The notes beneath the pieces were generated by a model. It did not search any database. It was not told where the DNA came from and saw nothing but the letters and a program-made list of their open reading frames with translations. A stretch of DNA of 64,000 nt from assembly GCA_001567105.1 (NCBI GenBank), contig LMZR01000014.1, positions 124,001 through 188,000 of the forward strand, in the 5' to 3' direction. Positions 15,796-56,070 of this stretch are shown in pieces (position 1 is the stretch's first letter; each line of letters opens with the position of its first letter). Made by a program: the position numbers and the translations under genes. The stretch is from Chloroflexi bacterium OLB14 (lineage in GTDB: Bacteria; Chloroflexota; Anaerolineae; Anaerolineales; Villigracilaceae).

Positions 15796-18700
15796 TTAAT
15801 TCCTTCGTCTTCTTTTCTTCTTATTGCCAGAATCTGAATCGCCAATTTGAATTGATGTTTCATTTGGCGCACTTGCAACTTCTGCTGTTTCAAGTGCGGT
15901 AATTTCAACACGGCGAGGTCTAGCAGCAAAGGCGCGTCCAATCACCAAACCACGCACATCTTCCAACAACTGCGCAAACATTTCAGATGCCTGTGCTTTA
16001 TATTGTACCAGTGGGTCACGCTGTCCGTAAGCCTCTAATCCAATCGAAACACGCAAAGCTTCAACTTTTGTTAAATACTCAACCCATAATTCACTGAAAG
16101 CGCCCAATAACAATTGACGATGAACTTCATTTAATACATACTTTCCAATTGCATCTGATAAAGTACCCGCTTCCGACTCGCTCAAGCTTGATACTGCTCC
16201 ATTGAGTTTATCTTCCCCGAAAGCGATTCGCGCCGCTGGACCAAAATCTGCCAATTTATTTGCATTTTGTTTCAGACGTGCAAACTCACTTTGTCCCCAA
16301 GTTGTTTGCAATTCTTTTTCAGCAGTTTCTAAATGATTCATGACATCATCAACAATGTCTTCGCTATCTTTGCCTTCTAACAGTTGGGCTGCATAAAAAA
16401 CATAAGTAAAGCGATTAAATAATTGCTTCACTTGTTTATGAGTCTTTTGGTCAAAGGCTGTGCGTGTGCCTTGAGATAATGTCAATAACAAACGTAACTT
16501 ACCCGTATTCGTAGATACATCTTCTCTTTGTAACAAAATATCAATATCACGCGCAATCTGATTATTTAATCGCTCACGTTTATTATCAAAGGCTTGTTTG
16601 GCAGTATCTAACAAAATATCTGCTAACTCGTCCCAATCTGATGGCAATGGACTTTGCAATTGCAATTGTTCACCCAAACGATTTTGAATCGCACCAATCA
16701 CTCTGGTTGCACTAATCACAGTCAATTGACTGGCTACCAAATCTTGAATTGATTCTTTAGCATCTTCGGGGTCATCTGCTAACAACTTTTGAATTTCATT
16801 ATTAAATCTCAATTGCAAACGGGCTAAAGCACTAATCTCTTCTTGTATCTTTTGCGGACGAGGCTTTTCCTCCATATCTCGCAAGCCTTGAAAGTAAGCA
16901 TCTAAGGCATCTTCTCTATCTGAGATTTGACTGTCTAAACTTTCTTGCGTTCGATTTATTAAATTCTCAATAGATTTAATGGCATGAGCATATTCTGCTT
17001 CGATAGATTTTGATGTCACTTTTTGGAATGCAGAAGCTTGCTCTTGCACATCCATCGGCAAGCCGATGGACTCCAAAAGAAGTTTGAAACCATAAGAAGG
17101 ATACAAACCATCTTTCGATTCAAATGCTGGTTGCACTTGATCTAACCAAGCGATTAAACGCCACGCGCCTTCTTCATCAGCCAAACCTGCTTCAACACGT
17201 TTGGTCACTTCGGCATCCAGCATTTCGTTAACATCATCACTCAAATCTTCTTTGAGAAAAATTCTGTCTCGTTGCTCATAAATTTGTTGGCGTTGTTTAT
17301 TCAACACATCATCATATTCCAACAAATGTTTACGCACATCAAAGTTTGCACCTTCAACGCGCGTTTGTGAACCTTCAATAATATTGCTGACGAGTCTTAG
17401 TTCTAATGGAAGTGCATCATCTACCTTAAGGCGATTCATCATTCCACCAACTTGCTCACCACCGAACAAACGCATCAAGTCATCTTGCATGGAAAGATAA
17501 AAACGTGAAGAGCCAGGGTCACCCTGACGAGCAGCACGTCCGCGTAACTGATTATCAATACGTCTGGCTTCGTGACGTTCCGAACCAATCACATGCAAAC
17601 CACCTAACTCTCTAACCAACGCCATATCTTCAAAATACTGTAAGAAAAGTTTAATCTCGGCTTCGTACAAACCAAAATTAGCGGGGTCCATTTTTTGTAA
17701 GGCTTCACGACGTTCTTGTAAAGTCATATCAAACGGATCTTTGTAACCTGCTTTATTCAACACGCGGTTAACTGCTGAAATAACTTCTTCTGCAATTTCA
17801 CCGCCCAATTTAATATCTACACCACGACCTGCCATGTTCGTAGCAATCGTCACAGCACCGAATGCACCAGCCCCTGCAATGATTTGCGATTCTTCCGTGT
17901 GTTTACGTGCATTCAACACTTGATGTGGCACACCACCTTGAAAAATTTTCTTCAATCTATCTTTGGCTGATTCTGGTAAGTGTAAAATTTCCAGCAATGC
18001 TTTCAGATTATTTTCATCGTCCAAACTGATACTATTTAATCCATGTGGCTTGATGAACGCCCGCAAAGCATCAGGCGTAATCTTATCTATCGGTTCATTG
18101 AACGGCACGAGGTCAGCAATGAGGCGTCCGTCTTCTTCCAAATTATTCGCTCGCAGATAATGATCACGCACCAAAGCATATTGCATCAAACGGCGAATCG
18201 ATTCTGCTTTCAGCCTGTTAGATAATTTATCAGATGATTCAACTGATGTAGTTCCCACCAACAACGGGCGACCAAGTGCATGGTTGCGAATTATTTCTGT
18301 AACAATAGCACGCAACTTTGCTTCAACATTTTTGAAGATGACATCAGGGTAATCTTTGCGGCGATAAAAAAGCGGCGTAGTTTCACCTGCTTTTACAAAA
18401 TATGAATAAGCATAGCCTTCATCATCTTTGCTTTTAATTTCAGTTAGCGGCGCAGTTTTTCCATAACTTTGATATTCAAGATTCGGCGCAATGGGTGCAA
18501 CTTCTAATTTATAAATTTTATTAAACTCTTCGGCTTCGGTTAATGCAGTGCCCGTCATGCCTGCAAGTTTTTGATACATGCGAAAATAATTTTGCAAAGT
18601 AACAGTAGCATACGTTACCGATTCAGGTTCAACCTTCACACCTTCTTTCGCTTCCACTGCCTGATGCAAACCATCACTCCATCTACGACCTGGCATTAAA

Positions 18701-19809
18701 CGCCCAGTAAATTCATCAACGATAACAACTTTGCCTGCTTGCACCAAATAATCTTTATTGCGATGAAAAAGATATTGTGCTCTTAACGCTTGTTGTAGAT
18801 AACCCATCATGCGGGCTTGTTCTGGAGATAAATCTTCGGGTCTTTCTGGATCTAATAGTTGGGTGCCCAATATGGCTTCTACTCGGCTGACACCAATTTC
18901 TGTTAAATTGATGTTGCGATTCTTTTCTTCCATTTCATAATCTTCGGGCTTGAGTTGTTTAACCACCTGCGCCATACGACCATACCATTCCAAATCACCT
19001 TGTGCTGGACCTGAAATAATTAACGGCGTGCGGGCTTCATCAATTAATACATTATCTGCTTCATCTATGATGGCGTAATAATGCCCGCGTTGAACACGTG
19101 CATCAAGTTTCATTGCCATGTTATCGCGCAGATAATCAAAACCAAATTCGGAATTTGTCCCAAAGGTTACATCGGCTTTATACGCTTCGACTCTATCCAC
19201 CATTCTTAAATGGCGTTGATCTTCATGTGGTGAATCTTTTTCAAAATCAACAATGAATGCTTTTTTGCCATTCTCTGTCACTGCCGCCATTTGCAAAACA
19301 CCAACGGATAATCCCAACGCATGATAAATCGGTGCCATCCAACGCGCATCACGACGGGCTAAATAATCATTGACTGTAATTAAATGTACGCCACGCCCTA
19401 ACAAGGCATTGAGATAAACAGGCATAGTAGCGACAAGTGTTTTTCCTTCACCTGTACGCATCTCTGCAATGTTACCTTCATGCAACGCCGCGCCACCGAT
19501 AATCTGCACGTCATAATGACGCAAGCCAATTGTGCGTTTAGATGCTTCACGCACCAAGGCAAAGGCTTGTGGCATGATTTCATTTAATACATCTTGTTCT
19601 GCTTGATGGCGTTCTTTTTCATCCTCAATCCCCTCAACAGCAGAAGTGACTTGAGCCTTAAACTCATCCGTCTTAGCCCGAATCTGCGCATCACTTAAAG
19701 AAGCAAACTGCTCCTCAAGCCCATTCACTTCCTCTACAATATGTTGATACTGCTCAACCGTCTTCTTTGTGGGGTCACCACTGAATAATTTTACAAAGTT
19801 CTTAAGCAT
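15796..19809 (-). CDS. secA: Preprotein translocase ATPase SecA (unusually long)
   Basis: The motor of the Sec export pathway. Walker A is AEMRTGEGKTLVATM, Walker B is YYAIIDEADNVLIDEARTP, and the second motor half holds VGTTSVESSDKLS, TIATNMAGRGVDIKLGG and the arginine-finger region LRGRAARQGDPGSSRFYLS. At 1337 aa it is about 400 to 500 residues longer than E. coli SecA. Extra length lies in NBD2 (around residues 540-640, before VPHQVLNARKHTEESQ) and in a long helical C-terminal half. The tail ends in a basic KKKRRRR stretch and lacks the usual zinc-binding Cys motif. Both traits fit Chloroflexota-type SecA as I understand it. Confidence 0.95.
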   Translation of the reverse strand: MLKNFVKLFSGDPTKKTVEQYQHIVEEVNGLEEQFASLSDAQIRAKTDEFKAQVTSAVEGIEDEKERHQAEQDVLNEIMPQAFALVREASKRTIGLRHYDVQIIGGAALHEGNIAEMRTGEGKTLVATMPVYLNALLGRGVHLITVNDYLARRDARWMAPIYHALGLSVGVLQMAAVTENGKKAFIVDFEKDSPHEDQRHLRMVDRVEAYKADVTFGTNSEFGFDYLRDNMAMKLDARVQRGHYYAIIDEADNVLIDEARTPLIISGPAQGDLEWYGRMAQVVKQLKPEDYEMEEKNRNINLTEIGVSRVEAILGTQLLDPERPEDLSPEQARMMGYLQQALRAQYLFHRNKDYLVQAGKVVIVDEFTGRLMPGRRWSDGLHQAVEAKEGVKVEPESVTYATVTLQNYFRMYQKLAGMTGTALTEAEEFNKIYKLEVAPIAPNLEYQSYGKTAPLTEIKSKDDEGYAYSYFVKAGETTPLFYRRKDYPDVIFKNVEAKLRAIVTEIIRNHALGRPLLVGTTSVESSDKLSNRLKAESIRRLMQYALVRDHYLRANNLEEDGRLIADLVPFNEPIDKITPDALRAFIKPHGLNSISLDDENNLKALLEILHLPESAKDRLKKIFQGGVPHQVLNARKHTEESQIIAGAGAFGAVTIATNMAGRGVDIKLGGEIAEEVISAVNRVLNKAGYKDPFDMTLQERREALQKMDPANFGLYEAEIKLFLQYFEDMALVRELGGLHVIGSERHEARRIDNQLRGRAARQGDPGSSRFYLSMQDDLMRLFGGEQVGGMMNRLKVDDALPLELRLVSNIIEGSQTRVEGANFDVRKHLLEYDDVLNKQRQQIYEQRDRIFLKEDLSDDVNEMLDAEVTKRVEAGLADEEGAWRLIAWLDQVQPAFESKDGLYPSYGFKLLLESIGLPMDVQEQASAFQKVTSKSIEAEYAHAIKSIENLINRTQESLDSQISDREDALDAYFQGLRDMEEKPRPQKIQEEISALARLQLRFNNEIQKLLADDPEDAKESIQDLVASQLTVISATRVIGAIQNRLGEQLQLQSPLPSDWDELADILLDTAKQAFDNKRERLNNQIARDIDILLQREDVSTNTGKLRLLLTLSQGTRTAFDQKTHKQVKQLFNRFTYVFYAAQLLEGKDSEDIVDDVMNHLETAEKELQTTWGQSEFARLKQNANKLADFGPAARIAFGEDKLNGAVSSLSESEAGTLSDAIGKYVLNEVHRQLLLGAFSELWVEYLTKVEALRVSIGLEAYGQRDPLVQYKAQASEMFAQLLEDVRGLVIGRAFAARPRRVEITALETAEVASAPNETSIQIGDSDSGNKKKRRRRN
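17052..17069. repeat. xxGCAAGCxx palindrome inside secA
   Basis: CCATCGGCAAGCCGATGG has 8-base arms and falls in a loop coding SIGLPM. It shares the GCAAGC centre with palindromes at 49864 and 59618. Confidence 0.55.
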
Positions 19810-19873
19810 TCAATTCCCTTTCGGGAAGAGATTATAGCATGGGGAATATTGGAGGAGTGTTAGAGATGGGAAA

Positions 19874-20494
19874 TTAAGGACTAAGATTTTGGGGACAAAT
19901 AAAATATTTATCAACATTGTCTCCACCTTCAGAAACCCAACCTCTTACTCCATCATCTGTTCTTATCTCCCACCACGACCAGTTATTTGCACATACCGGT
20001 CCATCAATAACACGAAAATAAGTGTTTGGTTCAATACGAGTAATTTCGGTGTCCGATGCATAAGGGCCAGTACGAACAATTAAGCGGTCATATTGTGTAC
20101 AAACAAAGCCTCTTCTTCCAACTTCGACTCTTTGAGGCGGAGCACCAGAACAACTTGTAATTAGAGGCAAAGGGGTATTTGAAGGTGTTGTTTTCAATAC
20201 TGAAGGGGTATTTGTTGGCGCAAAAAATAAAGTAGGTTCAATTAGCGTTGGAACAGGATTAGTTATTTGTTGTGTAAGAGCAATAAATTTAGAATCTTTT
20301 ATCAAAAAAATTCTAAGGAAGGAAAATGAAGCTATAAACATAATTAATAGCAGCGAAATAATAAGAAACTCCCACTGTTGGATCCTTATAAATCTGTCTC
20401 TTTTACATATCTTACAAAAGATATATCCATCTGGGATTATGGAATTACAAGCATGACAATGGGCTCTTTGTAAAAATTTCATTGCTTTATCCAT
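19874..20494 (-). CDS. Zinc-ribbon / TM / SH3b-domain protein (paralogue 2)
   Basis: 206 aa in three parts: an N-terminal four-cysteine zinc ribbon (CHACNSIIPDGYIFCKICKR, residues about 13-32), one membrane helix (FLIISLLLIMFIASFSFL), and a Ser/Thr/Pro-rich linker. A bacterial SH3 domain closes it, holding YDRLIVRTGPYASDTEITR, VIDGPVCANNWSWWEIRTDD and GWVSEGG. The topology suggests a cytoplasmic ribbon and an outside SH3b that binds peptide or cell wall. It is the last gene of the GTPase cassette and a clear paralogue of the gene directly upstream (same architecture, same GPxCA..WWEVRTDNG-like core). Function unknown. Confidence 0.75.
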   Translation of the reverse strand: MDKAMKFLQRAHCHACNSIIPDGYIFCKICKRDRFIRIQQWEFLIISLLLIMFIASFSFLRIFLIKDSKFIALTQQITNPVPTLIEPTLFFAPTNTPSVLKTTPSNTPLPLITSCSGAPPQRVEVGRRGFVCTQYDRLIVRTGPYASDTEITRIEPNTYFRVIDGPVCANNWSWWEIRTDDGVRGWVSEGGDNVDKYFICPQNLSP

Positions 20495-20512
20495 ATAAAA
20501 CGGTTTATAAAA

Positions 20513-21154
20513 TCATTTTATAGGCTCAAGTAAAATTTTGTTAGGTTGCATCTCACGTATCCACCCTTCATATCCATTATCTGTACGAACTTCCCACCAT
20601 GTACCTTCATGAGCGCATTTAGGTCCGCCAATAACTACCATTTTATCTCCTTCACTCAGCATTACAATAATGTTTTCATCCCATACATCTGGGACAATAG
20701 GAGTTGACCGTAAATTCACATCATAGAATGAAACAACGGCAGTATATCCGACTCTAAGTTTGACTTCAGATTTATCAGGGCAAGAATAATTTGTAAATGT
20801 TAAATCTTTCGGTGTGCTTGTACGTTGAGGTATTCTCGTGTTTGTTGGTATTTTAGTAGCCGTGATAAAAGATGAATTGTTATTTTCAGGTATTATCGGA
20901 GGTGACGATGCACTAGGGTTTTCAGTTGTTGACATTATGCTCTGCAAACTAGCAATTAACGCAGTCAAAGTCAATAACGATAATGAAACAACTATAGATA
21001 AGCTAGTTACAATGGCTATCAACTCCCATTTCTTAAATTGTAAAGCTCCATTAATACCTCTGCTACGACCACAGGTTTTGCAAAACCATTGCCCTTTGCT
21101 AATAACTGCACCACAAGATTGGCAAGGCGTTTCTTTTAACCAAGAACTTAGCAT
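20513..21154 (-). CDS. Zinc-ribbon / TM / SH3b-domain protein (paralogue 1)
   Basis: 213 aa with the same order of parts as its downstream neighbour. The zinc ribbon is CQSCGAVISKGQWFCKTCGR (residues 10-29), a membrane helix sits near 50-72 (AIVTSLSIVVSLSLLTLTAL), and the linker is rich in Ser, Pro and Thr. The C-terminal SH3b-like domain has VVSFYDVNLRSTPIV, VIGGPKCAHEGTWWEVRTDN and GYEGWIREM. The duplication of this module next to a GTPase and a large associated protein suggests it is part of that system, perhaps the sensory or output arm at the membrane. No enzymatic residues are visible. Confidence 0.75.
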   Translation of the reverse strand: MLSSWLKETPCQSCGAVISKGQWFCKTCGRSRGINGALQFKKWELIAIVTSLSIVVSLSLLTLTALIASLQSIMSTTENPSASSPPIIPENNNSSFITATKIPTNTRIPQRTSTPKDLTFTNYSCPDKSEVKLRVGYTAVVSFYDVNLRSTPIVPDVWDENIIVMLSEGDKMVVIGGPKCAHEGTWWEVRTDNGYEGWIREMQPNKILLEPIK

Positions 21155-21164
21155 AAAATTCCTC

Positions 21165-21482
21165 CTAAATACTCAGTAATGCAATAAATATGCTCAAAAT
21201 TATTGTGAATAAAAAAACTATTACAGGTATTCCAGTCTTTAAAAAAGGCGATAATTTTTCTAATCCCTTTCCCAACTGCTCTGCAAGTATATTACTTGCT
21301 ATCCCGTTTATTGCAGCAATAATCAAACCGATAACAACAATGATTTGAGGTGAAATGAAAATTTCATTAGACCCACCTTCTAATTCCCATCCAAAAAACA
21401 ATAAACTATACCCAAGTACAACGCAGGTAAAGACTAAAGTCATTATGCTAATGTAAATTAATATTCGAGAGTTATTGTTCAT
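21165..21482 (-). CDS. Small three-helix membrane protein of the GTPase cassette
   Basis: 105 aa with membrane helices at about 5-30 (ILIYISIMTLVFTCVVLGYSLL), 42-65 (IIVVIGLIIAAINGIASNIL) and 82-104. A short amphipathic stretch containing LGKGLEKLSPF lies between the last two. No family recognised. Spacings of 14 bases from the corrected upstream gene and 10 bases to the downstream gene indicate one operon. Confidence 0.6.
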   Translation of the reverse strand: MNNNSRILIYISIMTLVFTCVVLGYSLLFFGWELEGGSNEIFISPQIIVVIGLIIAAINGIASNILAEQLGKGLEKLSPFLKTGIPVIVFLFTIILSIFIALLSI

Positions 21483-21496
21483 GAATTTATTCTCTC

Positions 21497-21974
21497 TTAC
21501 CGAACAAAACGTGAGAATGTTCCTCGTGGCCCTTTAATTACCATATATACAAGTACGCCAAATAAAAAGCCCCAAGCTGAGCTCATGAGTAATTCCTGTA
21601 CTTGTGTATGAAAAAAAATAAAAGTAAAGGCAAATTGTGCTACCAGCAATAGTACCTAAAACAAAGAGGCTTGTAACTGCAGAATTATCTAAGACAAGAC
21701 TAGCAGACCATATATAAATCAAGCCTACAAAAAAACCGATACCTAAAGTTAGACATATTAAAGGCAGAATTATTTCAATAGACGGAATTTCCAGCCTACC
21801 AAATTGAATAAGAACAGCTACCAATGGACAAGTTGATAATCCAGCAAGAATAGCAATATAAGGTTGAGCATTAATGCCCTTTCGTTGTCTACCACTAATC
21901 GCCCCAATCCATGCTGAAAACAATATAATCAAAATATAAATAACTGGCGCTGTAATTAATAGAATTGTTTGCAT
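21497..21974 (-). CDS. Multi-helix membrane protein of the GTPase cassette (frameshifted near 3' end)
   Basis: The open frame from 21974 would end at 21534 with a polar, unlikely tail. Removing one T from a T8 run near 21620 restores a final membrane helix (SSAWGFLFGVLVYMVIKG) and a stop at 21497, giving about 158 aa with five hydrophobic segments. That end also leaves a normal 14-base gap to the next gene. The N-terminus (ILLITAPVIYILIILFSAWIG) is a signal anchor-like helix, followed by a short basic SGRQRKG loop. No family recognised. Confidence 0.6.
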
Positions 21975-21988
21975 GTTATTTCCTCTAG

Positions 21989-24618
21989 TTAGTATTTTTT
22001 TATTTCAGATTTAAGTTGTTTTGATAATGCTTTGCAAATTTCTAGCCAAATTATGTCTGGTGGTAAATCAGTAACCAAAGTTCTTAATCGATTTCCAAAA
22101 GTACTGGTTACATATTTTCCCATATAAACATCAAGTTTTTCTATCAAGCTTTCAGCCTCCTTAGGGCTCATTTCAACTATCCTTGCTGCTATCGAGCGGA
22201 TGAGTTTACTATCAAAAGCTTTCTTTTGTCCTATTAGCATCCCAGCATGATTAGGCCGTATATAAGACAAGTTGGACAAACTAAGAGTCCGATAAATCGT
22301 ATCGAATGGATTTATAAATATTCCTCTATGAAATAATAGCCAATACGCAAAAACATCAGCTTCGTAGTGTAATCCGGCATTATCTAATGAGAAATATAAA
22401 TCTTTCAATTTATAATCCTCAATCTTGTAAAACCGATTCTCTAAAAGAATTTGAATTAAGTAATTATGATATTCATTTAAGTATCTACGGTTGCGAATAT
22501 GTCCTTCAAATAACATCCACGCCTCAATATCCACAAATCGAGAAAATTCATAAGTAAAATCAAAAATGATATGTCCTAAATTTTCTTTTTTGATTTTACT
22601 AGTGAATGTGTCTTCAACCCTCTTAATTCTATTTTTTTTCTGAATATTAGTTCTTATTTCCTCAGAGATTCGGTTAATATTTCTAAGTTTAGGTTTAGTC
22701 TCAACAAAATTTAGCATCGTCTCTAATTGCTGAACAGAAAAAAACATCCAGTGTTTCATTAAGATTTCTATTCCCTCGTCAATGTACTGAGGTTGACACA
22801 TTTCTATTGAAGATAGATAATTATTTAAGAACTTGGGTTTTGTATCTCCTTTCTGTATTTGATTCAAAATAATTGAAAAAGCCGTGATAGCAGTTAGCAG
22901 ATCATCTCTTTCATCTCTTACGTTTTCAAAAAATTTATTTGCTGTTTCCAATCCGATTTTTTCAATTAGGAGCGGTATTTCTTGATAGAATCCATCAACA
23001 TTTTCATAACCGAATTTAATTTGAGAACCAAGCCATTTGTAGCTTTGAAGTTCTGCGAAACATTTTGGAAGAAATTCAAGATATTTTTTAGGGACATCAT
23101 CATTTACAGAATCTAAAAACTTGAAATTCTGAGGTATATCAGTTGGTAATTTTGAAAGTCTTTTCAATAAGCTTAAAAGAGCCATGAATGCTTGTTTATT
23201 AGGTGGGCATCCAATTATATTTACGATATATAAAAAATCATCTTTACCTTGGATTTGACTAAGTTGAGCTAAAGCAGAGACAAAATGTCCCGTAGAACTT
23301 GCCCATTCAAGTTGTATTAATTTTGACCAAAGGTATAATGCCTTTTTATATTGTTTTGAATTAAGGCAATATTGTAGAATTTCTTCACAAAACCTAATAA
23401 GTAATGGCTGATTAGTTTTGATACCATATTCAGTAATATGGATAATAAAGTCAGTTAGTTTAAATAAATCTTTTTCTTTTTGGGGTAAAAATATTTCATT
23501 TACAATTTTCTTAACAAGTATTTGTCTGGATTTATCATCAGAAATTATCACTATATAATGAGACAATGCTTCTACCCCAATATCATAAGCAGGGAAATTA
23601 ATAACAAAAGTCAATAAGTCTGAAAGCCACCTCTCTGCTTCCTCTTTCGGAAATATCCATGAGAACTCATTGACAGGTGTATTTAATTGTTGTTTGATCT
23701 GAGATACCTCCGTAATTTTTAAGTATTCGTTACGATTGGGATACCACCGTTTGTACTTAACTGCCAAATCTAGTTCATCGCCAATAGTTTTCAAATGCTT
23801 TGCTTTTTGCGGCAAAATTAATTTTGAAATTTCTCTTTTGAGTTCTCTGCCATCTGATTTTCTAATGAGTTCATCTATCCAATTTACATATATTACACCA
23901 GATAAGTCTTGTATATTTGGAGATTGCCACTCTACAACCTGTCCATATTGGCTTTGCCGAGTCGAAAAAAAATACTCTTACTGAATCAGATGTATCTTTA
24001 GCAAGGGTAGAAAAAGATATAGAGGCTCTATAGGGTTGCGGGATACATTGGAAAATTGAGCATAAAAATTCTATTCGAATTTTATGATCACCTAGAGAAG
24101 AAATTATATTAATTTTTTCTCTAGATGATAAATACTTAGCAAGCACTGCTCCAATTTGAGCAGGAAATTGAGAAAGTACATCCACCCGAATAGTATTATT
24201 AGTAAATTCAATTTCTATAGGTGGAATATCTTTTGTAATATTTTTATAATATGAAATGTTTTTAAATGCTTGAAAAATTGGATAAACATCCCAATCAATT
24301 TTTTCAAGTTGAGATAAAGTAATATAAAGAAATTCTGAAAAGACTGGCTTACCGCGCGAAGTTGGCTCGGTAAGTTCCATCAACTCATAATGAGCGGCAA
24401 CAAAACCATCTTTGAATAAAGGAAAAAAGCCATAGACATGACTGGATTCTCCCATGAAATCATTTGTTAAACCTAATCTTATAGTTTTGTATATTTCTCT
24501 TTGTAACTCTTCCGAAAAAGATTCACTATAAGCTATGGGTTGCAAGTCACCATATACATTTTTTTCCATCTGATGTTTGCAACATGCCATAAATATAATG
24601 AGGAAATTCAAGTTTCAT
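21989..24618 (-). CDS. Large GTPase-associated protein, GAP1-like (two apparent frameshifts)
   Basis: Three fragments join into one 875-aa gene. A start ATG at 24618 (MKLEFPHYIYGMLQTSDGK) is separated from the frame ending at 23871 by an extra A in an A7 run near 24570. That frame joins the long one ending at 21989 after one extra T in a T8 run near 23970. The corrected start, the loop LTEPTSRGKPVFSEFLYITL and the position behind a P-loop GTPase resemble the N-terminal domain of GTPase-associated protein 1 (GAP1-N) of NTPase-based conflict systems. This is by recollection, not search. The last 600 residues look alpha-helical and repeat-like. The start is 1 base beyond the GTPase stop, implying translational coupling. 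Confidence 0.6.
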
Positions 24619-24619
24619 T

Positions 24620-25546
24620 TTATATACCTAGAAACTTACGGAGTCCTTTAACTACATCGGCATACTTCTTCCCTCTTGTCCTTCTAATTCTAACATCTTC
24701 GTCGTCATCAGCCAGTTTATCTAGAATCCATTCCAAAGACTCAGCCACGCCTATTGGTTTTATGCTTGCTGGCTTTCGAATTTTGTTTACATCGCCGTTG
24801 CTGGCTTCTTTATCCCACTGAGACTTTCTACCTTTTTCTGTATCAACAAACCCTGTAGCGCTAACTGGCAACCAATAAACATGATCGGTATCAAAGGCCT
24901 GATCAATTATTGCCTTAGCATTTCTGCCGAGAATCTTTTCCGCTAACTCCTCAACCTCCTCAAAGTATCCCTCTTTGTCAAATTTGCTATTGGGTCCTTG
25001 CCCCTCAACTTGATCAACTTTTGTCACGCAAAACACTATATAAGGTTTAGCACCTTCTGTTTGCTCTTGAATTTGGGCAATAATAGCACTAAATAATGGA
25101 AAATATGGATCAGTACCTTTATTGGGTAAAATTTCACCTTCTAGCCAAGATTGTTGTGAGTCTAATAAGAATATTATTCCAGAGCTACCTTTTACATACT
25201 GCTCATAGAAATCGTGATAAATAGATGCGCCAGCAACCCCTCTGATCGCTTCACCCGGCACGTCTGCTGCATGAAGCCTAAATTGAGCGCCGGGACTTAA
25301 ACCAAGCATGGTTGCCTCCTTCTCAACCACAAAAAACATCTTATTTTCTACTTGAGTTTGTGGAGGGTATTCGCTCTGTGAGAAAATTTGTGCTGTAAGA
25401 TCTGACATATCTTTGATTGTTTGCCCCACTGGTCTAATCCGCCATGGAGATTGTTCTAAGGCTAATGCTAAATTCAATACACCTAAGAAAGTTGTTTTAC
25501 CCGCTTTTTTAAGTCCTAATATTGAAATTACTTTATCACTTGGCAT
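24620..25546 (-). CDS. P-loop GTPase of the DO-GTPase/GAP1 type
   Basis: 308 aa. G1 is ISILGLKKAGKTTFLGVLN, with a G3-like element in LHAADVPGEAIRGV (DxPG), and G4 is FCVTKVDQVEG. A Ser-rich loop and LLDSQQSWLEGEIL follow G3, and the C-terminal tail is short and basic (RIRRTRGKKYADVVKGLRKF). It resembles TRAFAC-like GTPases found beside GAP1 proteins in bacterial conflict and signalling loci. It is the first gene of a tight six-gene operon with the large GAP1-like protein, two small membrane proteins and two SH3b proteins. Substrate and trigger are unknown. Confidence 0.75.
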   Translation of the reverse strand: MPSDKVISILGLKKAGKTTFLGVLNLALALEQSPWRIRPVGQTIKDMSDLTAQIFSQSEYPPQTQVENKMFFVVEKEATMLGLSPGAQFRLHAADVPGEAIRGVAGASIYHDFYEQYVKGSSGIIFLLDSQQSWLEGEILPNKGTDPYFPLFSAIIAQIQEQTEGAKPYIVFCVTKVDQVEGQGPNSKFDKEGYFEEVEELAEKILGRNAKAIIDQAFDTDHVYWLPVSATGFVDTEKGRKSQWDKEASNGDVNKIRKPASIKPIGVAESLEWILDKLADDDEDVRIRRTRGKKYADVVKGLRKFLGI

Positions 25547-25886
25547 AAATCGTCTCCATCTTGGATTTTAGTTTTTCAATACAAAGATATCTATATTATG
25601 TTTGATTCATTTAATTTTTGCATCTTGACTAACGCATGTTAAACATGCTGGAAAGTTCCGCACTCAAATTCCCCTCAATTCTTAGATGCTCCCCTCTTAT
25701 CCATCGAACATTCGATATTTGACACCCAAGATGAATGCAGATATCTTTTAGGCGGTAATCTATTTCATTACCACCTAAAGATTATGGCTATTTTACGACT
25801 TTCCACATTTAATTTCAACCTCAATTTACTCAAAAAACTTTCAATTCTTTAAGCCACCCGCCCAGTGGATTTTTGAACATGCGTGC
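25547..25886. other. Divergent intergenic region between the GTPase cassette and dnaE
   Basis: No gene is visible. It holds TTGACT (25625-25630) followed by a 15-base palindrome GCATGTTAAACATGC (25634-25648). A strong stem-loop runs from 25743 to 25782, with arms containing TTTAGG(C)GGTAAT and ATTACC(A)CCTAAA. The palindrome is a plausible operator; the stem-loop lacks a T-run. Confidence 0.6.
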
Positions 25887-25892
25887 TATAAT
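25884..25892 (+). promoter_or_regulatory. Extended -10 promoter of dnaE
   Basis: TGCTATAAT combines a TG extension with a perfect TATAAT (25887-25892). No good -35 is present. The start site would be near 25899, so the whole dnaE leader is the octamer array that follows. Confidence 0.75.
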
Positions 25893-25901
25893 TCGGTTTG
25901 A

Positions 25902-25970
25902 TAGTTACATAGTTGGCTAGTTATCTAGTTCAACTAACAAACTACCAAACTACCTAACTAATAAACTAAC
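25902..25970. repeat. Octamer array forming the entire dnaE leader
   Basis: Units TAGTTACA, TAGTTGGC, TAGTTATC and TAGTTCAA are followed by complementary-type units CTAACAAA, CTACCAAA, CTACCTAA and CTAATAAA, giving a long imperfect hairpin. The array ends directly at the dnaE ATG, and no Shine-Dalgarno motif is visible. Confidence 0.75.
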
Positions 25971-28900
25971 ATGTCCTTCGCCCACTTACACGTTCACACT
26001 GAATATTCTTTATTAGATGGCTTCTCGAATATCAAGAAGTTAGTGAAGCGTGTTAAAGAAATGGATATGCCCGCAGTTGCCATCACTGACCATGGCACGA
26101 TGTATGGTGTGATTGATTTTTACAAAGCCGCAAAAGGTGTAGGGGTTAAACCTATCATTGGTTTAGAAGCCTATATGGCGCCACGCGGTATGAAAGATAA
26201 AGATTCAAAACTTGACCGTCATTCTTCGCATTTACTTTTATTAGCAGAAAATGAAGTTGGTTATCAAAACTTATTGAAGATTGCCTCCGCTTCACAATTG
26301 GAAGGCTACTATTATCATCCACGCATTGACCATGATTTTCTAGCACAACATTCAGAGGGATTAATTTGTACCAGCGGATGTATGTCTGCTGAAATTCCAA
26401 AAGCATTGTTATATGAAAATCCACAAGAAGCAGTGCGCCGTTGGAATTGGTATTACGATTTATTTGGTGCCGATAGATTTTTTGTAGAACTGCAAAGCCA
26501 TAACATTCCAGAAATTACAGACTTAAATAAAAAATTATTAGAACTTGGTGCAAAATATAACGCACGTTATATCGCCACCAATGATGTGCATTACATTAAT
26601 CAAGAAGATGCAAAGTTACAAGACATCATGTTAACGATGCAAACGCAAACGGTACTCAGTGACCCTGAACGTATGCGCATGAGTGATGATTCATATTTCC
26701 TGCGCCCACCTGCTGAAATGCAAAGGTTATTTGCTGAAGTACCTGAGTCAATGTCTAACACGTTGTTGATTGCTGAACGCTGTAATGTCAATTTAGATTT
26801 CCAAGGTTATCACTTACCAGATTTCCCTGTGCCTTCAAATCACACTGCTGAAACATATTTACGTGAACTTTGCGAGGCTGGGGCTAGGAAAAGGTATGGG
26901 GATGAAGCCACCAGCCAGAAAGTCCGCGAAAGACTCGCTTATGAACTTCGTATCGTGCATGAGATGGGATTCGATGCCTACTTCTTAATCGTGTGGGATT
27001 TATGTCGCTTCGCCCGTGAACGTGGAATTTGGTACAACGCCCGCGGCTCGGCGGCTGGCTCGATCATTGCTTATACACTCGAAATTGCATTGGTAGATCC
27101 ATTAGAACATAATTTAATTTTTGAACGCTTCTTAAATCCAGGTCGTGTGTCTATGCCTGATATTGATTTGGATTTTCAAGATGAGCGTCGGTCTGAAATG
27201 TTGGGCTATTGTGTGAATAAATATGGCACAGATAAAGTTGCTCAAATTATTACCTTTGGCACAATGGGAACAAAAGCCGCCATTCGTGATGTAGCGCGGG
27301 TGATGGAAATTCCATTACCCGAAGTTGACCGTGTTGCTAAACTTGTGCCATTTGCCGCCGCCAAAGGTGCAGGCATGGAAGATGCTATGGCAGTGCGTGA
27401 GTTCAAAGAAATTTATGATAACAACGCGCAAATGCGTGAAGTGATAGACATTGCCACAAAAATGGAAGGCACTGTGCGTAATGCAGGCACACATGCGGCT
27501 GGCGTTGTGATTTCAGATAAAGCACTGACAGAATATTTGCCACTTCATCGCCCAACATCAAATTCAGAAGAAACGCCAATAAAATCCGTAACGCAATTTG
27601 AAATGGGCGTGCTTGAAACATTGGGCATGTTAAAAGTAGATTTTCTTGGCTTAATCACATTAACTGTTATGGCACGCGCATGTGATTTTATTGAAAAACG
27701 TCACGGCATTAAATATGATTTGAATAATATTCCAATTGACGACCCGAAAGCATTTGAATTAATGAGTGCTGGTCAAACGGCTGGCGTGTTCCAAGTAGAA
27801 GGAAGTGGAATGACGCGTTACATCGTGCAAATGAAACCAAAAAATTTGGATAACATCATTGCTATGGTGGCGTTGTATCGTCCAGGTCCGATGGCGTTTA
27901 TTCCTGACTATATTTCTCGCATGCACGGCACACAAGCAGTTAAATATCGTCATCCATCAATGGAAAAGATTTTTAGTGATACCTATGGCATTCCAATTTA
28001 TCAAGAACAATTGATGCAAGCCGCAGTAGAGTTAGCAGGCTATACACCTTCCGAATCAGATGAATTGCGCAGAGCCATTTCTAAAAAGAAAAAAGAAGAT
28101 ATTGATAAACATCGTAATAAATTTGTAAAAGGTGCAGTAGCCAAAGGCATGACTGAACCTATTGCCAATGATATTTATTCTGATTGGGAAGAATTTGCAA
28201 GGTATGGATTTAACAAATCTCACGCCGCTGATTATGGTGTGATTGCAGTTCAAACTGCATTCTTAAAATCTAAATACCCAACCGAATACATGACCGCGCT
28301 TCTATCTGCTACGGCAAGCCAAACTGACAAAGTTGCTTACTATGTTGCCGATGCACGTTTAATGGGCGTACCAGTTTTACAACCTGACATCAATGCATCC
28401 ACTTGGGATTTTGATATTGAGGATGTTGAAACTTCCGCCGAGGACGGCGGAAGTAGCCATGCTCACACCGCCGTCCTCGGCGGCGTGGGAAAGAGCAAAA
28501 CAAAATCACAAATTCGTTTTGGCTTAGGCGCCATTAAAAATGTTGGTCAACAAGCCGTGCAACCGATTATTGATGAACGAATCAAAAACGGAAAATTTAC
28601 AGACCTAAATGATTTTGCTCGCCGTGTTGATTTACGTTCTGTTGGCAAACGCGCACTTGAATGTTTAATCAAAGTTGGCGCAATGGATTCTTTTGGTAAT
28701 CGTGCATCTATGTTGGCTTCGTTAGATAAAATCGTTTCCATTTCCAGTGCACACTTCCGCGCCGCAGATGTTGGGCAAATTAGCATGTTTGGTAGCACAA
28801 GCGGCGTTGTGGAAGAAATCAAATTGCCCGAAGTAAAAAATGTTGATAAACGTGAAATGTTAAATTGGGAACGCGAACTCATCGGGCTTTACATTTCAGA

Positions 28901-29957
28901 TCATCCGCTCAATGAATATCAAGCCACGCTTTCACAAATCGTCAGTTATTTTTCTGGTCAACTTTCCGAATCGAGTCACGAAGAAAAAGTTCGCGTGGCG
29001 GGTCTCATCACAAACATTCGTCCGTACACCACAAAAACTGGCAAGCCAATGGGCTTCGTCACCATTGAAGATATTCAAGGCGTAATGGAAACTGTTTTAT
29101 TTCCAAAAACTTGGGAGCAATACAAAACGAAATTAAATAATGATCAAATCGTTATTATTGAAGGAAAAGTTGATCACAGCAACACGCCACCAAAAATTTT
29201 AGTAGATGTGATTAAAACTGAAATCAAGATTTTAGAATCAGCAGATGATTCGACTCTCAAACCTATTCCTGTTCAAAAACCATCCGCTTCAAAACCTGAC
29301 CCGAAACCTGTTTCTGCACCCAAACAGAATCCAAAGCCTGATGCAAATGTAGGTCACGCTTCTAGCGTGACAAATAAAATTAAACAAGAAAGTCACGTTC
29401 AAAACGTGACCTACGCGATAGCAGAATCAAAACCTGAATATGATGATATGCCTCCCCCACCTGATAACTTCCCAGAAGATTGGGAAAGTCAATGGCAACC
29501 ATCTTTTGATGAAGCAAACATTGCTTCACAAAAAGAACCGAAATTTAAGAAAAATGAAGAAGTGACTCCACCTTTAGCGAATCGTGTGGCTGAGGCATTG
29601 ATAAATGTCGAAGAGCAGAACCAACTAGACGATAAGTTTGAAGCGCTTATTCCATCTTTATATGTTCCACTTGCAAAAGAAAATAAAGATAAAGAACATC
29701 CGCCACAACAGATCACAATTACGTTACGCTCCACTGGTGACCGCGAGCGTGATAAACGGCGCATCAAAACTTTGTATGGCACGCTGATTTCGTATCATGG
29801 GCGCGATAAATTTAGTTTTCAAATTTTTGAAAATAGCAAAGGGCATCTAATTGATTTCCCCAACGAAAGCACACGCATTTGCCCCGAGTTGTTAGAACGC
29901 CTGAAAAAATTATTAGATGAAGAATCTTGGCGGGTGGATGAGATAACGTATCAGTAA
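25971..29957 (+). CDS. dnaE: DNA polymerase III alpha subunit
   Basis: The replicative polymerase, 1328 aa. The N-terminal PHP domain is AHLHVHTEYSLLDGFSNIKK with VAITDHGTMYGVIDFYKA. The palm has RGSAAGSIIAYTLEI and PDIDLDFQDERRSEML, the fingers VALYRPGPMAFIPDYI, and RRAISKKKKEDIDKH with FARYGFNKSHAADY follow. Then come a helix-hairpin-helix region and an OB fold (KVRVAGLITNIRPYTTKTGK). After the OB fold there is a low-complexity linker rich in Pro and Lys and a last domain of roughly 110 residues. Two repeat families are inserted in frame, at 28431-28487 and 29349-29414. The ATG directly abuts the octamer leader. Confidence 0.95.
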   Translation: MSFAHLHVHTEYSLLDGFSNIKKLVKRVKEMDMPAVAITDHGTMYGVIDFYKAAKGVGVKPIIGLEAYMAPRGMKDKDSKLDRHSSHLLLLAENEVGYQNLLKIASASQLEGYYYHPRIDHDFLAQHSEGLICTSGCMSAEIPKALLYENPQEAVRRWNWYYDLFGADRFFVELQSHNIPEITDLNKKLLELGAKYNARYIATNDVHYINQEDAKLQDIMLTMQTQTVLSDPERMRMSDDSYFLRPPAEMQRLFAEVPESMSNTLLIAERCNVNLDFQGYHLPDFPVPSNHTAETYLRELCEAGARKRYGDEATSQKVRERLAYELRIVHEMGFDAYFLIVWDLCRFARERGIWYNARGSAAGSIIAYTLEIALVDPLEHNLIFERFLNPGRVSMPDIDLDFQDERRSEMLGYCVNKYGTDKVAQIITFGTMGTKAAIRDVARVMEIPLPEVDRVAKLVPFAAAKGAGMEDAMAVREFKEIYDNNAQMREVIDIATKMEGTVRNAGTHAAGVVISDKALTEYLPLHRPTSNSEETPIKSVTQFEMGVLETLGMLKVDFLGLITLTVMARACDFIEKRHGIKYDLNNIPIDDPKAFELMSAGQTAGVFQVEGSGMTRYIVQMKPKNLDNIIAMVALYRPGPMAFIPDYISRMHGTQAVKYRHPSMEKIFSDTYGIPIYQEQLMQAAVELAGYTPSESDELRRAISKKKKEDIDKHRNKFVKGAVAKGMTEPIANDIYSDWEEFARYGFNKSHAADYGVIAVQTAFLKSKYPTEYMTALLSATASQTDKVAYYVADARLMGVPVLQPDINASTWDFDIEDVETSAEDGGSSHAHTAVLGGVGKSKTKSQIRFGLGAIKNVGQQAVQPIIDERIKNGKFTDLNDFARRVDLRSVGKRALECLIKVGAMDSFGNRASMLASLDKIVSISSAHFRAADVGQISMFGSTSGVVEEIKLPEVKNVDKREMLNWERELIGLYISDHPLNEYQATLSQIVSYFSGQLSESSHEEKVRVAGLITNIRPYTTKTGKPMGFVTIEDIQGVMETVLFPKTWEQYKTKLNNDQIVIIEGKVDHSNTPPKILVDVIKTEIKILESADDSTLKPIPVQKPSASKPDPKPVSAPKQNPKPDANVGHASSVTNKIKQESHVQNVTYAIAESKPEYDDMPPPPDNFPEDWESQWQPSFDEANIASQKEPKFKKNEEVTPPLANRVAEALINVEEQNQLDDKFEALIPSLYVPLAKENKDKEHPPQQITITLRSTGDRERDKRRIKTLYGTLISYHGRDKFSFQIFENSKGHLIDFPNESTRICPELLERLKKLLDEESWRVDEITYQ
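28431..28487. repeat. CCGCCGTCCTCGGCGG palindromes in frame in dnaE
   Basis: Two GC-rich units in opposite orientation, TTCCGCCGAGGACGGCGGAA and CGCCGTCCTCGGCGGCG, code for the segment around SAEDGGSS and TAVLGGVG. Ordinary DnaE passes directly into IRFGLxAIKNVG there. A further copy is at 49580-49598. Confidence 0.85.
29349..29414. repeat. GTAGGTCACG palindromes in frame in dnaE linker
   Basis: One unit (29349-29371) and an inverted unit (29391-29414) flank a 19-base AT-rich spacer. They are translated within the low-complexity linker after the OB fold. Confidence 0.85.
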
Positions 29958-31792: not shown

Positions 31793-34163
31793 TCAATTCC
31801 CACGCTCCACAACAACCTGCATTTCAACCCCATCAGTGCTAATATCAATCCAGCCATTTCGGTCGGTGCGCAACAAAGAAAAACCATCCAAAGCATCCAG
31901 CGTCTCTTTCGAGGGCAAGCCATTTGGGTCGCCCGCAGCAACACTCAATATCACCAATTGCGGAGTCAAATTCTCAAACAAATCTGATGGGTTCGATGGC
32001 GCGTACCCTGAATCGGCTAACAACAAAACATCTACAGCGCCAACTGTATTTCCAAATTCCAAAACATCATAAGTAGATTGATCAATGCCAATAGGAAGTA
32101 ATGCCCGAAAATTTTCATATTGGATTAAAAGTACGCTTCCTCTTGTACCTTGTGCCTGTATCTCGATAAACGAGTTTTCTCCTATCGTCAGTCTTTGACC
32201 TGTTTCCGCTTGCGTAACGGGAATATTTTCATTAGCAAAATATTTATCTAATGCTTGTGCCGAAAAAGAGGCTTGTAAATTTCCACTCCATAAAACATTT
32301 TCGGGGACATATCTCTCTACGATACGTGGCAAAGCCGTTAATTGTGCTTCTTGAGTAGATGCGATAATCAGCCAATCTAACTGGCGCGAAAAAAACGGAA
32401 GCCTTCTACCTAATTCATCAGACAATTCTGAAGCACTAGAGCCGCCGTTAATTAAAATGCTTCTGCCTTCGGGAGTTTGAATCAGAACTGCATCGGCTGA
32501 GCCAACATCTAAAAATGTTAGGTGAAATCTATTATCACCTGCACTGGCAGCGGCACGCCAAAAACCAGCATACACACAAAGGCAAATACAAAAGCAATCG
32601 TTAGAGCGACAGCACGAAGAGCAGAGGCTGAAGCGAGAATTTTTTTCTTTGATGATAGACCAATTAAAAGTCATGAAAAGAAGCGGGGGGTATATCCATA
32701 AAATCATATTAGACCAAAAGTCTCCTAAGATAATAACGCCATGTGGGATTGAATCGAAAAATTCAACCACATGAATTGTATAGGTGGCAAATGCCCATGC
32801 AAACCACGCTATGCTTTGACCAAGCCAATAAAAAATTAAACTTGCAAAAACTGAAAGCCCACCGATAATCATCACCATAGGTTGAACAGGCAAAATGAAA
32901 GGGTTGGCGATGAATGAAATGAGTGAAATACGTTGGAAGTGATAAGCCATAATGGGGATGGTCATAATTTGGGCGGCAATGGTGAGCATGATGTTGTCAT
33001 TGATGAGTTTTGTAATTGTATTGATATCAGATTTCCAAAACTTTGTTACAAGTTTTTCGGTCAGGTTTGCAAGCGGTTCAGCATATATAATAATTCCAAG
33101 TGTGGCAAAGAATGAAAGTTGAAAGCCAACATCCCATAAAACAAGTGGATTAAGCAGTGCCATGCAAGCGGCAACGAAAGCCAATGAACTCAGCATTGTT
33201 TGTTTGCGCCCTAACAACATGGCAAACATAGAAATACTCCCCATAATGGCGGCGCGTAAGACTGCGGCGTCCATGCCAACTAAAAAAGGCATATAAAAAT
33301 ACACCCATGATTGCCACTAAGGCGCCCCATCTTTCTCCTAAAAATGTTTTGAAGATAGAAAGAAAAATACCTGCAATGATGGCAATGTTGAAACCTGAAA
33401 TGGCAATGATGTGCGCCGTGCCTGTATTTTTGAAAGCTTGTTGTAAATCTTTGGGTAAGCCAGTATCTACACCGAATAATATGCCTGCAAATAATGAGGC
33501 TTCGGGGTCTTGAAAAAGTTGATATGTGTTTTGAATTAATTTGTTCTTGAAATTGTAAACTTGAGTTAAGAAAAAATTCCCACGATTATTAGGAAGTCGT
33601 GTTACTTCTGTTTTAGATATGGTTGCATAGATATATTGTCTAGCAAGATAGTCTTTATAAGAAAAGTCTTCATTTACTGGTGGCGTTAACAGCCGACCAC
33701 GTAACCTGAGGCGTTGACCATATTCATAGATTTCGTTAGGTTGCACACGCACAAGAATTAAACCTGAAACTGGTAAATCACCATCACCTGTATCAATAAA
33801 TTCGGTTTGAATTTTTAAGTTCGTATATGTGTCACGATAATCAGGTGCTTCCGCTACATATCCAGTAATTAATACTTCGTAATTGCGATCATTATAGAAA
33901 GCGATATGAAAGGCATCAACATTTGGTTGGCGAAATTGGTAGTAAGCTGAGCCGAGAAAAAAAAATAGCAGGAAGTAGAAAATGGAAAGTGGAAAGGTAG
34001 TTTGTATTGCGTACTTCGTGATTAATGATTTTCTTGCGAAGAAAAAAATAAAACAAGAAAAAAAGAAAGCCGAAATTAAAATCCATACCCATGTGGGAAG
34101 CGATATAAAATTAGCAAAAATAATTCCAAAGATGAAGGATAGTGAAATCCATAATAAAGGCAT
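31793..34163 (-). CDS. comEC: ComEC/Rec2-type DNA uptake channel, three apparent frameshifts
   Basis: Joined length is about 789 aa, normal for ComEC. The first part (from the ATG at 34163) has two helices, the OB-like domain (LRLRGRLLTPPVNEDFSYKD) and the competence signature HIIAISGFNIAIIAGI. An extra T near 33290 breaks it before LVGMDAAVLRAAIMG. An extra A near 32650 and a missing T near 32565 bracket a membrane helix (ASALRAVALTIAFVFAF) that is mistranslated in the open frame. The C-terminal metallo-beta-lactamase-like domain keeps FLDVGSADAVLIQTPEG but lacks the HxHxDH ligands (IIASTQEAQLTAL). It imports single-stranded DNA in competence. Confidence 0.88.
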
Positions 34164-55298: not shown

Positions 55299-56070
55299 TT
55301 ATTTAGAATCTGGCAACACCATTGGGATATCCAAAAACGGATGCTTGACTACTTGCACAGGTAAACAATAGGCATTGGCAATTAAATCAGGTTTCAAAAC
55401 TTCTTTTGGCGTGCCAATGGCATTGATTTTCCCAGCCACCATCACAGCGATTCGATCTGCATAACGTGCGGCTAAATTCAAATCGTGCATGGCGACTAAG
55501 ATTGCTAAATTATTTTCTTTGGCTAATTTACGAATCAATTCCAATAAACTAACTTGATATTGCAAATCTAAATGTGAGGTTGGTTCATCTAATAAAAGAA
55601 TCGGTGTGGATTGACATAATGCACGGGCTAATAAAATTCGTTGGGCTTCACCGCCAGATAATTCACCCACACGCCTTTCAGCAAAGTTCAAGGCATTGAC
55701 TCGGTTCAAAGATTCACGCACCAACTCTTCGTCATGTTTTGAAGCGTTTCCTAAAAATCCCAAGTAAGGTGTACGTCCCATCAAAACTGTTTCCCAAACA
55801 GAAAATGCAGGTGGCAATGAAATCGCTTGCGGAACAACGGCAATATAACGCGCACGTTCCATGGGATTCATGTTGCTGAAATTTTTTTCCATCAGTTTGA
55901 ATTTCACCACGCGCATCAATCACGCCACTGACGGCGCGAATCAAAGTTGATTTACCCGCACCGTTGGGACCAATCAACGCTAACACTTCGCCATTTTTCA
56001 CATCAAACGAAACATCATGCAAAATTTCGCGTTGATTATAGGAAACAAAAAGATTTTTTATGTTTAACAT
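55299..56070 (-). CDS. btuD: Cobalamin/Fe-siderophore ABC ATPase BtuD, apparent frameshift
   Basis: The start MLNIKNLFVSYNQREIL with Walker A LIGPNGAGKSTLIRAVSG runs from 56070. One extra A in the A7 run near 55890 shifts it, and the rest continues in the frame to 55299. That part has NFSNMNPMERARYIAVVPQ, VWETVLMGRTPYLGFLG, signature LSGGEAQRILLARAL, Walker B LLLDEPTSHLD and the H-loop AMHDLNLAARYAD. Corrected length is about 256 aa. It pairs with btuC and btuF of the same operon for corrinoid import. It is the last gene of the operon, its ATG abutting the acetyltransferase stop. Confidence 0.88.

What the first reader, a model, noticed from the sequence alone, without database searches (positions are those of the whole stretch)
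19874..25546. GTPase / GAP1-like / membrane / SH3b cassette, candidate undescribed signalling or defence system
Six tightly spaced minus-strand genes. In order they are a P-loop GTPase, an 875-aa partner whose start resembles GTPase-associated proteins, two membrane proteins, and two duplicated zinc-ribbon/TM/SH3b proteins. The region is more AT-rich than its neighbours by eye. Known GAP1 systems (Aravind/Iyer-type NTPase conflict systems) have GTPase and GAP1 with peptidase, TIR or other effectors; a pairing with SH3b surface modules is not one I know.
Basis: partly seen in the sequence, partly recalled or inferred. Interest (0 to 1): 0.72.

Follow-up and report, generated by a model that had tools for sequence, protein, structure and literature searches.

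The report
Split membrane GTPase–GAP1 conflict-type cassette
A small gene cluster that looks like a variant of a known bacterial GTPase switch thought to guard the cell membrane, with its cell-wall-sensing parts on separate proteins; it is a lone insertion in this genome and its second gene is broken as assembled.

Summary
Six tightly packed minus-strand genes are really there. The first is a DO-GTPase2 (PF19993, 30.6 bits against a cut-off of 27). The "875-aa partner" is not one open frame: it is read in three pieces with two frame breaks. No Pfam GAP1 model finds it, but it is a very divergent GAP1: read through, it scores E 9e-5 against a profile of GAP1 and GAP1-like proteins that excludes it (0 of 3000 shuffles as high). 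The match, the GAP1 middle domain, runs across the second break. The GTPase–partner pair recurs in 12 of 12 readable relatives, 11 actinobacterial and one Nostoc. The rest (4-TM protein, 3-TM protein, two zinc-ribbon–TM–SH3b proteins) recurs in none, except a possible ribbon–TM gene in Nostoc. The partner is absent from the other 56 genus genomes; the cassette sits in a variable spot between secA and dnaE. SH3 with DO-GTPases is already published (Kaur 2020), fused to the GTPase. Verdict: new variant of a known kind, probably a membrane-proximal conflict or envelope switch; function untested, possibly a decayed copy.

The parts
24620..25546 (-). DO-GTPase2-like GTPase, 308 aa, no zinc ribbon, no TM
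   Evidence: PF19993 E 3.4e-7, 30.6 bits (cut-off 27); only PF19993 match in its genome; G1 GLKKAGKT, G3 DVPG(E), G4 TKVD, G5 SAT
24549..24618 (-). first piece of the GAP1-like gene (N-terminal ..HYIYG.. motif), starts 1 nt after the GTPase stop
   Evidence: collinear by eye with the N-terminus of the Nostoc protein
23937..24611 (-). second piece of the GAP1-like gene (rest of N domain and most of the M domain); its frame stays open to 23871
   Evidence: 14.1 bits, E 0.006 with a profile built without it
21989..23941 (-). third piece of the GAP1-like gene, about 650 aa; end of the M domain, then predicted all-helical C-terminal region
   Evidence: low-confidence model, mean pLDDT 50, all helices
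21534..21974 (-). 146-aa membrane protein, 4 predicted TM helices
   Evidence: no family at or above a curated cut-off; no match in plasmids
21165..21482 (-). 105-aa membrane protein, 3 predicted TM helices, candidate effector (inference)
   Evidence: no family match; no match in plasmids
20513..21154 (-). 213-aa zinc ribbon / single TM / SH3b protein, N-terminus predicted inside
   Evidence: Zn_ribbon_3 E 6.6e-4, SH3_3 E 2.6e-4 (both below cut-off); CxxC-x10-CxxC and TM 45-63
19874..20494 (-). 206-aa zinc ribbon / single TM / SH3b paralogue, 32% identical to the previous one
   Evidence: SH3_3 34.2 bits (cut-off 27)
25547..25970 (.). divergent intergenic region to dnaE, place of a presumed promoter
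   Evidence: promoter-like matches in the region scanned are not above shuffles (29 against 27.6)

Best explanation
A horizontally acquired DO-GTPase-GAP1 membrane switch, a relative of the GAP1-N2-type GTPase systems of Kaur et al. 2020. Shown: the GTPase family; the adjacency of GTPase and GAP1-like genes across phyla; the divergent GAP1 middle domain; the ribbon/TM/SH3b anatomy; the placement in a variable spot between secA and dnaE. Inferred: the zinc-ribbon-TM-SH3b pair is a bitopic sensor, with SH3b outside on the cell wall and the ribbon inside where it can touch the GTPase-GAP1 complex. A wall or envelope disturbance is relayed to the GTPase. GTP binding and hydrolysis, read out through GAP1, then set free or activate the small membrane proteins (3-TM and 4-TM), which act on the membrane. 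The parts that other systems fuse into one membrane DO-GTPase (ribbon, TM bundle, C-terminal TM with SH3) are here separate polypeptides.
For: GTPase over the Pfam cut-off. Partner directly downstream in 12 of 12 readable relatives; its start overlaps the GTPase stop in 8 of the 12 (L065, L066, L067, L068, L070, L071, L072, L074). Leave-one-out scores are 76-277 bits for 12 actinobacterial sequences (L051 included) and 8.7 bits for Nostoc, 0 of 1000 shuffles each. A profile of these partners, run on 599 other ORFs and 2000 shuffles, put six further ORFs above every shuffle; five of the six are GAP1-N2/GAP1-M proteins by Pfam, one is an ABC ATPase. Window partner with the combined profile: 19.8 bits, E 9e-5, 0 of 3000 shuffles, best of all except a true GAP1. 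SH3 and zinc ribbons are recorded in such systems.
Against: Neither GAP1-N1, -N2 nor -M of Pfam finds the window protein. The N domain was not shown by profile, only by a short motif. Profile-profile scores are weak (hhalign E 0.03-0.09 for the window in one comparison each), and with the relatives' profile alone 3 of 3000 shuffles score as high. No FNIII protein and no second GTPase. The downstream genes are unique to this locus, so their membership is guilt by proximity. Frame broken twice. Structure models too poor to use (pLDDT 48 and 50).
Confidence: 0.6

Rival explanations
1. Only the GTPase-GAP1 pair is the system; the two membrane proteins and the SH3b pair are separate cargo or host-lineage genes that ended up next to it in an insertion hot spot.
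For: SH3b relatives occur in 20 of 56 other genus genomes and once more in the own genome, never beside a GTPase or GAP1 relative in the 12 regions read. The secA-dnaE spot carries different genes in different genomes. No relative has the SH3b pair.
Against: Gaps of 10-51 nt and one strand throughout. SH3 and zinc-ribbon/TM modules are recorded for this system type. Nostoc has a short ribbon-TM gene right after GAP1 (E 0.03).
Confidence: 0.25
2. Decayed remnant: the GAP1-like gene is truly frameshifted and the cassette is dead.
For: Two frame breaks in one gene. Low GC and lone occurrence fit a recent, dispensable insertion.
Against: A conserved gene in the same window, comEC, is split in the same manner, so assembly errors are at least as likely. 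The other cassette ORFs are intact, and the two long partner frames stay open for hundreds of codons outside the breaks.
Confidence: 0.15
3. Housekeeping-like envelope signalling rather than defence: a wall-integrity sensor that uses a GTPase switch.
For: SH3b outside, ribbon inside; relatives carry vWA and Ser/Thr kinase genes. A 2024 PSP paper places a DO-GTPase protein with membrane stress (one passage seen).
Against: Partner absent from all 56 other genus genomes, and placed in a variable spot: an accessory pattern.
Confidence: 0.25

Closest known systems
GAP1-N2-type GTPase-centric conflict systems (Kaur, Burroughs, Iyer, Aravind 2020, PMC7159879)
   Same: DO-GTPase followed by a GAP1; membrane proteins; zinc ribbons; bacterial SH3 domains
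   Different: GAP1 too divergent for Pfam; single ribbon-less GTPase; ribbon, TM and SH3b on separate, duplicated proteins; no FNIII, tubulin, HSP70, kinase or vWA gene
Actinobacterial GTPase + partner (about 730-990 aa) + vWA + Ser/Thr kinase loci (L051, L065-L075)
   Same: GTPase and partner gene, order and coupling; same divergent GAP1 class
   Different: Further genes are vWA and kinase proteins. They may be the 'third theme' of Kaur et al. (kinase, PP2C, vWA); this was not checked against that paper's gene lists
Nostoc punctiforme NIES-2108 locus (L076)
   Same: GTPase, GAP1-like 1175 aa, then a short ribbon-TM gene
   Different: Dynamin-like GTPase upstream, trypsin-TPR protein downstream, no SH3b seen
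Pfam-positive GAP1-N2 loci in the same phylum sample (L036, L041-L048)
   Same: DO-GTPase2 and GAP1 with membrane companions
   Different: Pfam-detectable GAP1 where scanned; ribbon often on the GTPase; other membrane companions; GTPases fall on the other side of a weakly supported split

Membership tests
DO-GTPase family | match to the DO-GTPase Pfam model over its curated cut-off | tested here: met
   PF19993 30.6 bits against 27; DO-GTPase1 25.9 against 27 not reached
DO-GTPase family | glutamate in the Walker B motif | tested here: inconclusive
   window has DVPGE at residues 95-99; that this is the meant glutamate is my reading of one sentence
GAP1 | gene directly downstream of the DO-GTPase | tested here: met
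   start 1 nt after the GTPase stop
GAP1 | GAP1-N1 or GAP1-N2 domain | tested here: inconclusive
   no Pfam match; short YG motif only
GAP1 | GAP1-M domain | tested here: inconclusive
   no Pfam match at E 1; own profile E 9e-5, 0 of 3000 shuffles
GAP1 | GAP1-C domain | not tested
   no profile was built for it; C-terminal model all-helical at pLDDT 50
GAP1-N2-type system | FNIII-repeat protein in the operon | tested here: not met
   no FNIII match in any cassette ORF
GAP1-N2-type system | GTPase with N-terminal zinc ribbons (usual, not universal) | tested here: not met
   no CxxC in the GTPase; ribbons lie on the SH3b proteins
GAP1-N2-type system | TM components and, in some, bacterial SH3 | tested here: met
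known anti-phage defence systems | match to a PADLOC model | tested here: not met
   no match at E 0.1 for the seven window ORFs scanned

The most novel reading that the evidence does not exclude
The window protein, the actinobacterial vWA/kinase-linked proteins and the Nostoc protein form a third GAP1 class outside N1 and N2, with its own GTPase clade and reaching cyanobacteria. In the window's version the membrane sensor has been unbundled into paired ribbon-TM-SH3b receptors that report cell-wall damage to a soluble GTPase-GAP1 switch.
Probability: 0.3. Interest if true: 0.6.

Novelty: new variant of a known kind. Interest (0 to 1): 0.42.

Why it matters
The Pfam models of GAP1 miss this class, so DO-GTPase systems are likely undercounted, including in cyanobacteria, where they were reported as nearly absent. 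If the ribbon–TM–SH3b proteins are the receptors, separate genes make the sensing step of these untested systems easy to probe one by one.

Tried and rejected
Pfam, PADLOC, NCBIfam and PHROGs on the cassette: nothing for the partner or the two small membrane proteins at a curated cut-off. Viral contigs: 0 relatives in four scans. Plasmids: none for the window GTPase or the two membrane proteins. phmmer against the PDB: no usable hit. Profile-profile comparison: weak. Structure: two models at pLDDT 48 and 50, so no fold search was run. Repeats or att-like ends: only chance-like repeats. Promoter and terminator scans: not above shuffles. GTPase tree: the window row has a long branch (1.91), placed with the relatives' side at 92/74, not a firm fork; the relatives form one side in 47% of bootstraps.

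In one search a real Nostoc homologue (L089) was among the 599 'decoys', and the decoy loci include many fetched for a DO-GTPase2 match, so GAP1 neighbours are enriched in them to a degree that I did not count. In-97 loci known or likely to hold GAP1 were taken out of the decoys except L008, which proved to be GAP1.

Full report
What is there. Between secA (15796-19809, minus) and dnaE (25971-29957, plus) lies a block of minus-strand genes. The first, 24620-25546, is a 308-aa GTPase with G1 GLKKAGKT, G3 DVPG followed by E, G4 TKVD and G5 SAT. It reaches the curated score of PF19993 DO-GTPase2 (30.6 against 27 bits) and just misses DO-GTPase1. It is the only PF19993 match in its genome.

The partner. 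In the window an ORF starts 1 nt after the GTPase stop (24618) and runs into a stop at 24549; the homology goes on in the frame of 23871-24611 and then in the frame of 21989-23941. The frame changes near 24,560 and near 23,940. comEC in the same window is split too: one ORF covers positions 1-71 of PF03772 and the next 67-267. Broken frames are thus not special to the cassette, and assembly errors and real decay cannot be told apart here.

Finding relatives. The 608-aa part of the partner was found in 1 of 57 genus genomes and 1 of 152 family genomes, the own one in both cases. The GTPase was found in 2 of 400 genomes of the phylum: the own one and G436. The record title of that contig says Rubrobacter, while the genome tool counts it in the window's phylum; I could not settle this. 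The G436 protein led to a Streptomyces plasmid with, in order, a 432-aa gene, GTPase, an 868-aa gene, a vWA gene and a protein kinase. One is a false ABC-type match and one ends after the GTPase. In the other 12 (Lentzea x2, Microbispora, Frankia, Streptomyces x3, Streptosporangium x2, Protofrankia, Actinoplanes, Nostoc) a large gene follows the GTPase; in eight of these 12 its start overlaps the GTPase stop. vWA relatives were found by blastp in 7 of the 12 and kinases in 6 of the 12, some loci being cut by contig ends.

Is the partner a GAP1? Pfam finds no GAP1 domain in the window protein, nor in the seven relatives scanned, except GAP1-M at E 0.06 in one. Three tests say it is nonetheless related. 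(a) A profile of 13 relatives' N-terminal parts, without the window, ranked 599 ORFs and 2000 shuffles. Apart from a real Nostoc homologue left in by mistake, six ORFs beat every shuffle; five are GAP1-N2/GAP1-M proteins by Pfam, one an ABC ATPase. This ties the relatives to GAP1; in that run the window protein scored only 2.6 bits and ranked 13th. (b) A profile of 13 GAP1 proteins scored the window piece 9.5 bits; of 455 decoys only a true GAP1 scored higher (the window's own ORF, counted among the decoys, scored 9.4), and 0 of 2000 shuffles did. For the read-through form 1 of 3000 shuffles did. (c) A profile of both sets, window left out, gave the piece E 0.006 and the read-through protein 19.8 bits, E 9e-5, 0 of 3000 shuffles; the match is the middle domain and runs through the second frame break. 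The N domain rests on a short YG motif and position only. Profile-profile scores were weak, and the relatives' profile alone is not decisive for the window (3 of 3000 shuffles, 0 of 1000).

The other genes. The 146-aa and 105-aa proteins have 4 and 3 predicted TM helices (hydropathy only) and no relatives that I could find. The 213- and 206-aa proteins have a CxxC-x10-CxxC ribbon, one TM helix and a C-terminal SH3b, and are 32% identical. Seven or eight K/R against two to four D/E in the first 44 residues suggest that the ribbon lies inside and SH3b outside (inference). SH3b relatives occur in 21 of 57 genus genomes, the own one included. In the 12 regions read none sits by a GTPase or GAP1 relative; one, with a double ribbon, lies beside a TrwB/TraD-like ATPase. 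The Nostoc locus has a 121-aa ribbon–TM gene right after GAP1, weakly similar to the 213-aa protein (E 0.03). A scan for four-cysteine ribbon proteins in the relatives' loci found no ribbon–TM gene in the actinobacterial ones; its pattern misses the Nostoc one.

Setting. The block is 34.1% GC against 39.3%, lower than any other non-overlapping 5.67-kb stretch of the window. The GTPase gene is not AT-rich. In 20 secA regions of genus-mates, dnaE was reached in six, and the genes between differ; no cassette protein was found in any of the 20 (tblastn E 1e-5; three of the 20 regions hold less than 4 kb upstream of secA). So the cassette is an insertion or replacement in a variable spot.

How it probably works. 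By analogy with the published proposal for DO-GTPase systems, where the GTPase is a switch and GAP1 joins sensing to effectors (passages of PMC7159879), I infer: SH3b senses the wall, the ribbon relays inward, GTPase–GAP1 switches, and the small membrane proteins act. Only anatomy and homology are shown. GAP1-N2 systems in that paper put ribbons, TM helices and SH3 on DO-GTPases; here the same modules are separate genes.

Novelty. Three text searches for DO-GTPase, GAP1 and related terms returned Kaur et al. 2020 and one PSP paper as the only relevant items in the listings. Nothing seen there describes standalone ribbon–TM–SH3b pairs with a DO-GTPase, but I read only passages and one section of the main paper, and its gene lists were not readable. 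I therefore call it a new variant of a known kind.

Noticed in passing
L091:9731-14620 (genome G817, same class as Nostoc NIES-2108): A tightly overlapping operon of iSTAND (PF19995 E 1e-28), MoxR-type AAA, vWA_CoxE and a 589-aa protein with a C-terminal DO-GTPase2 45% identical to the Nostoc GTPase: a DO-GTPase inside a MoxR-vWA ternary system, though Kaur 2020 states that the core pairs are not exchanged.
   Followed up: partly
31793-34163: comEC is broken into two ORFs in the window, which hints at indel errors or decay in this assembly.
   Followed up: partly
55299-55919: ABC ATPase ORF matches only positions 55-137 of ABC_tran; its N-terminal part seems lost or out of frame.
   Followed up: no
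19809-25971 and L145-L164: The secA-dnaE interval is a variable spot in the genus, with STAND-like, toxin-like or regulator-like ORFs by eye in different genomes.
   Followed up: partly
L103:7711-9839: In a genus-mate, a double zinc-ribbon-TM-SH3b protein follows a TrwB/TraD-like ATPase.
   Followed up: no
L076:6445-17737: Nostoc NIES-2108: dynamin-like GTPase, DO-GTPase2, GAP1-like, ribbon-TM, a 169-aa gene and a trypsin-TPR gene in a row.
   Followed up: partly
L074:1104-11292: Protofrankia coriariae carries two GTPase-partner pairs on opposite strands around a vWA gene.
   Followed up: no
L035/L064: The nearest GTPase relative has a Ser/Thr kinase gene, fused to a domain like the 432-aa Streptomyces gene, 10 nt upstream.
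   Followed up: no
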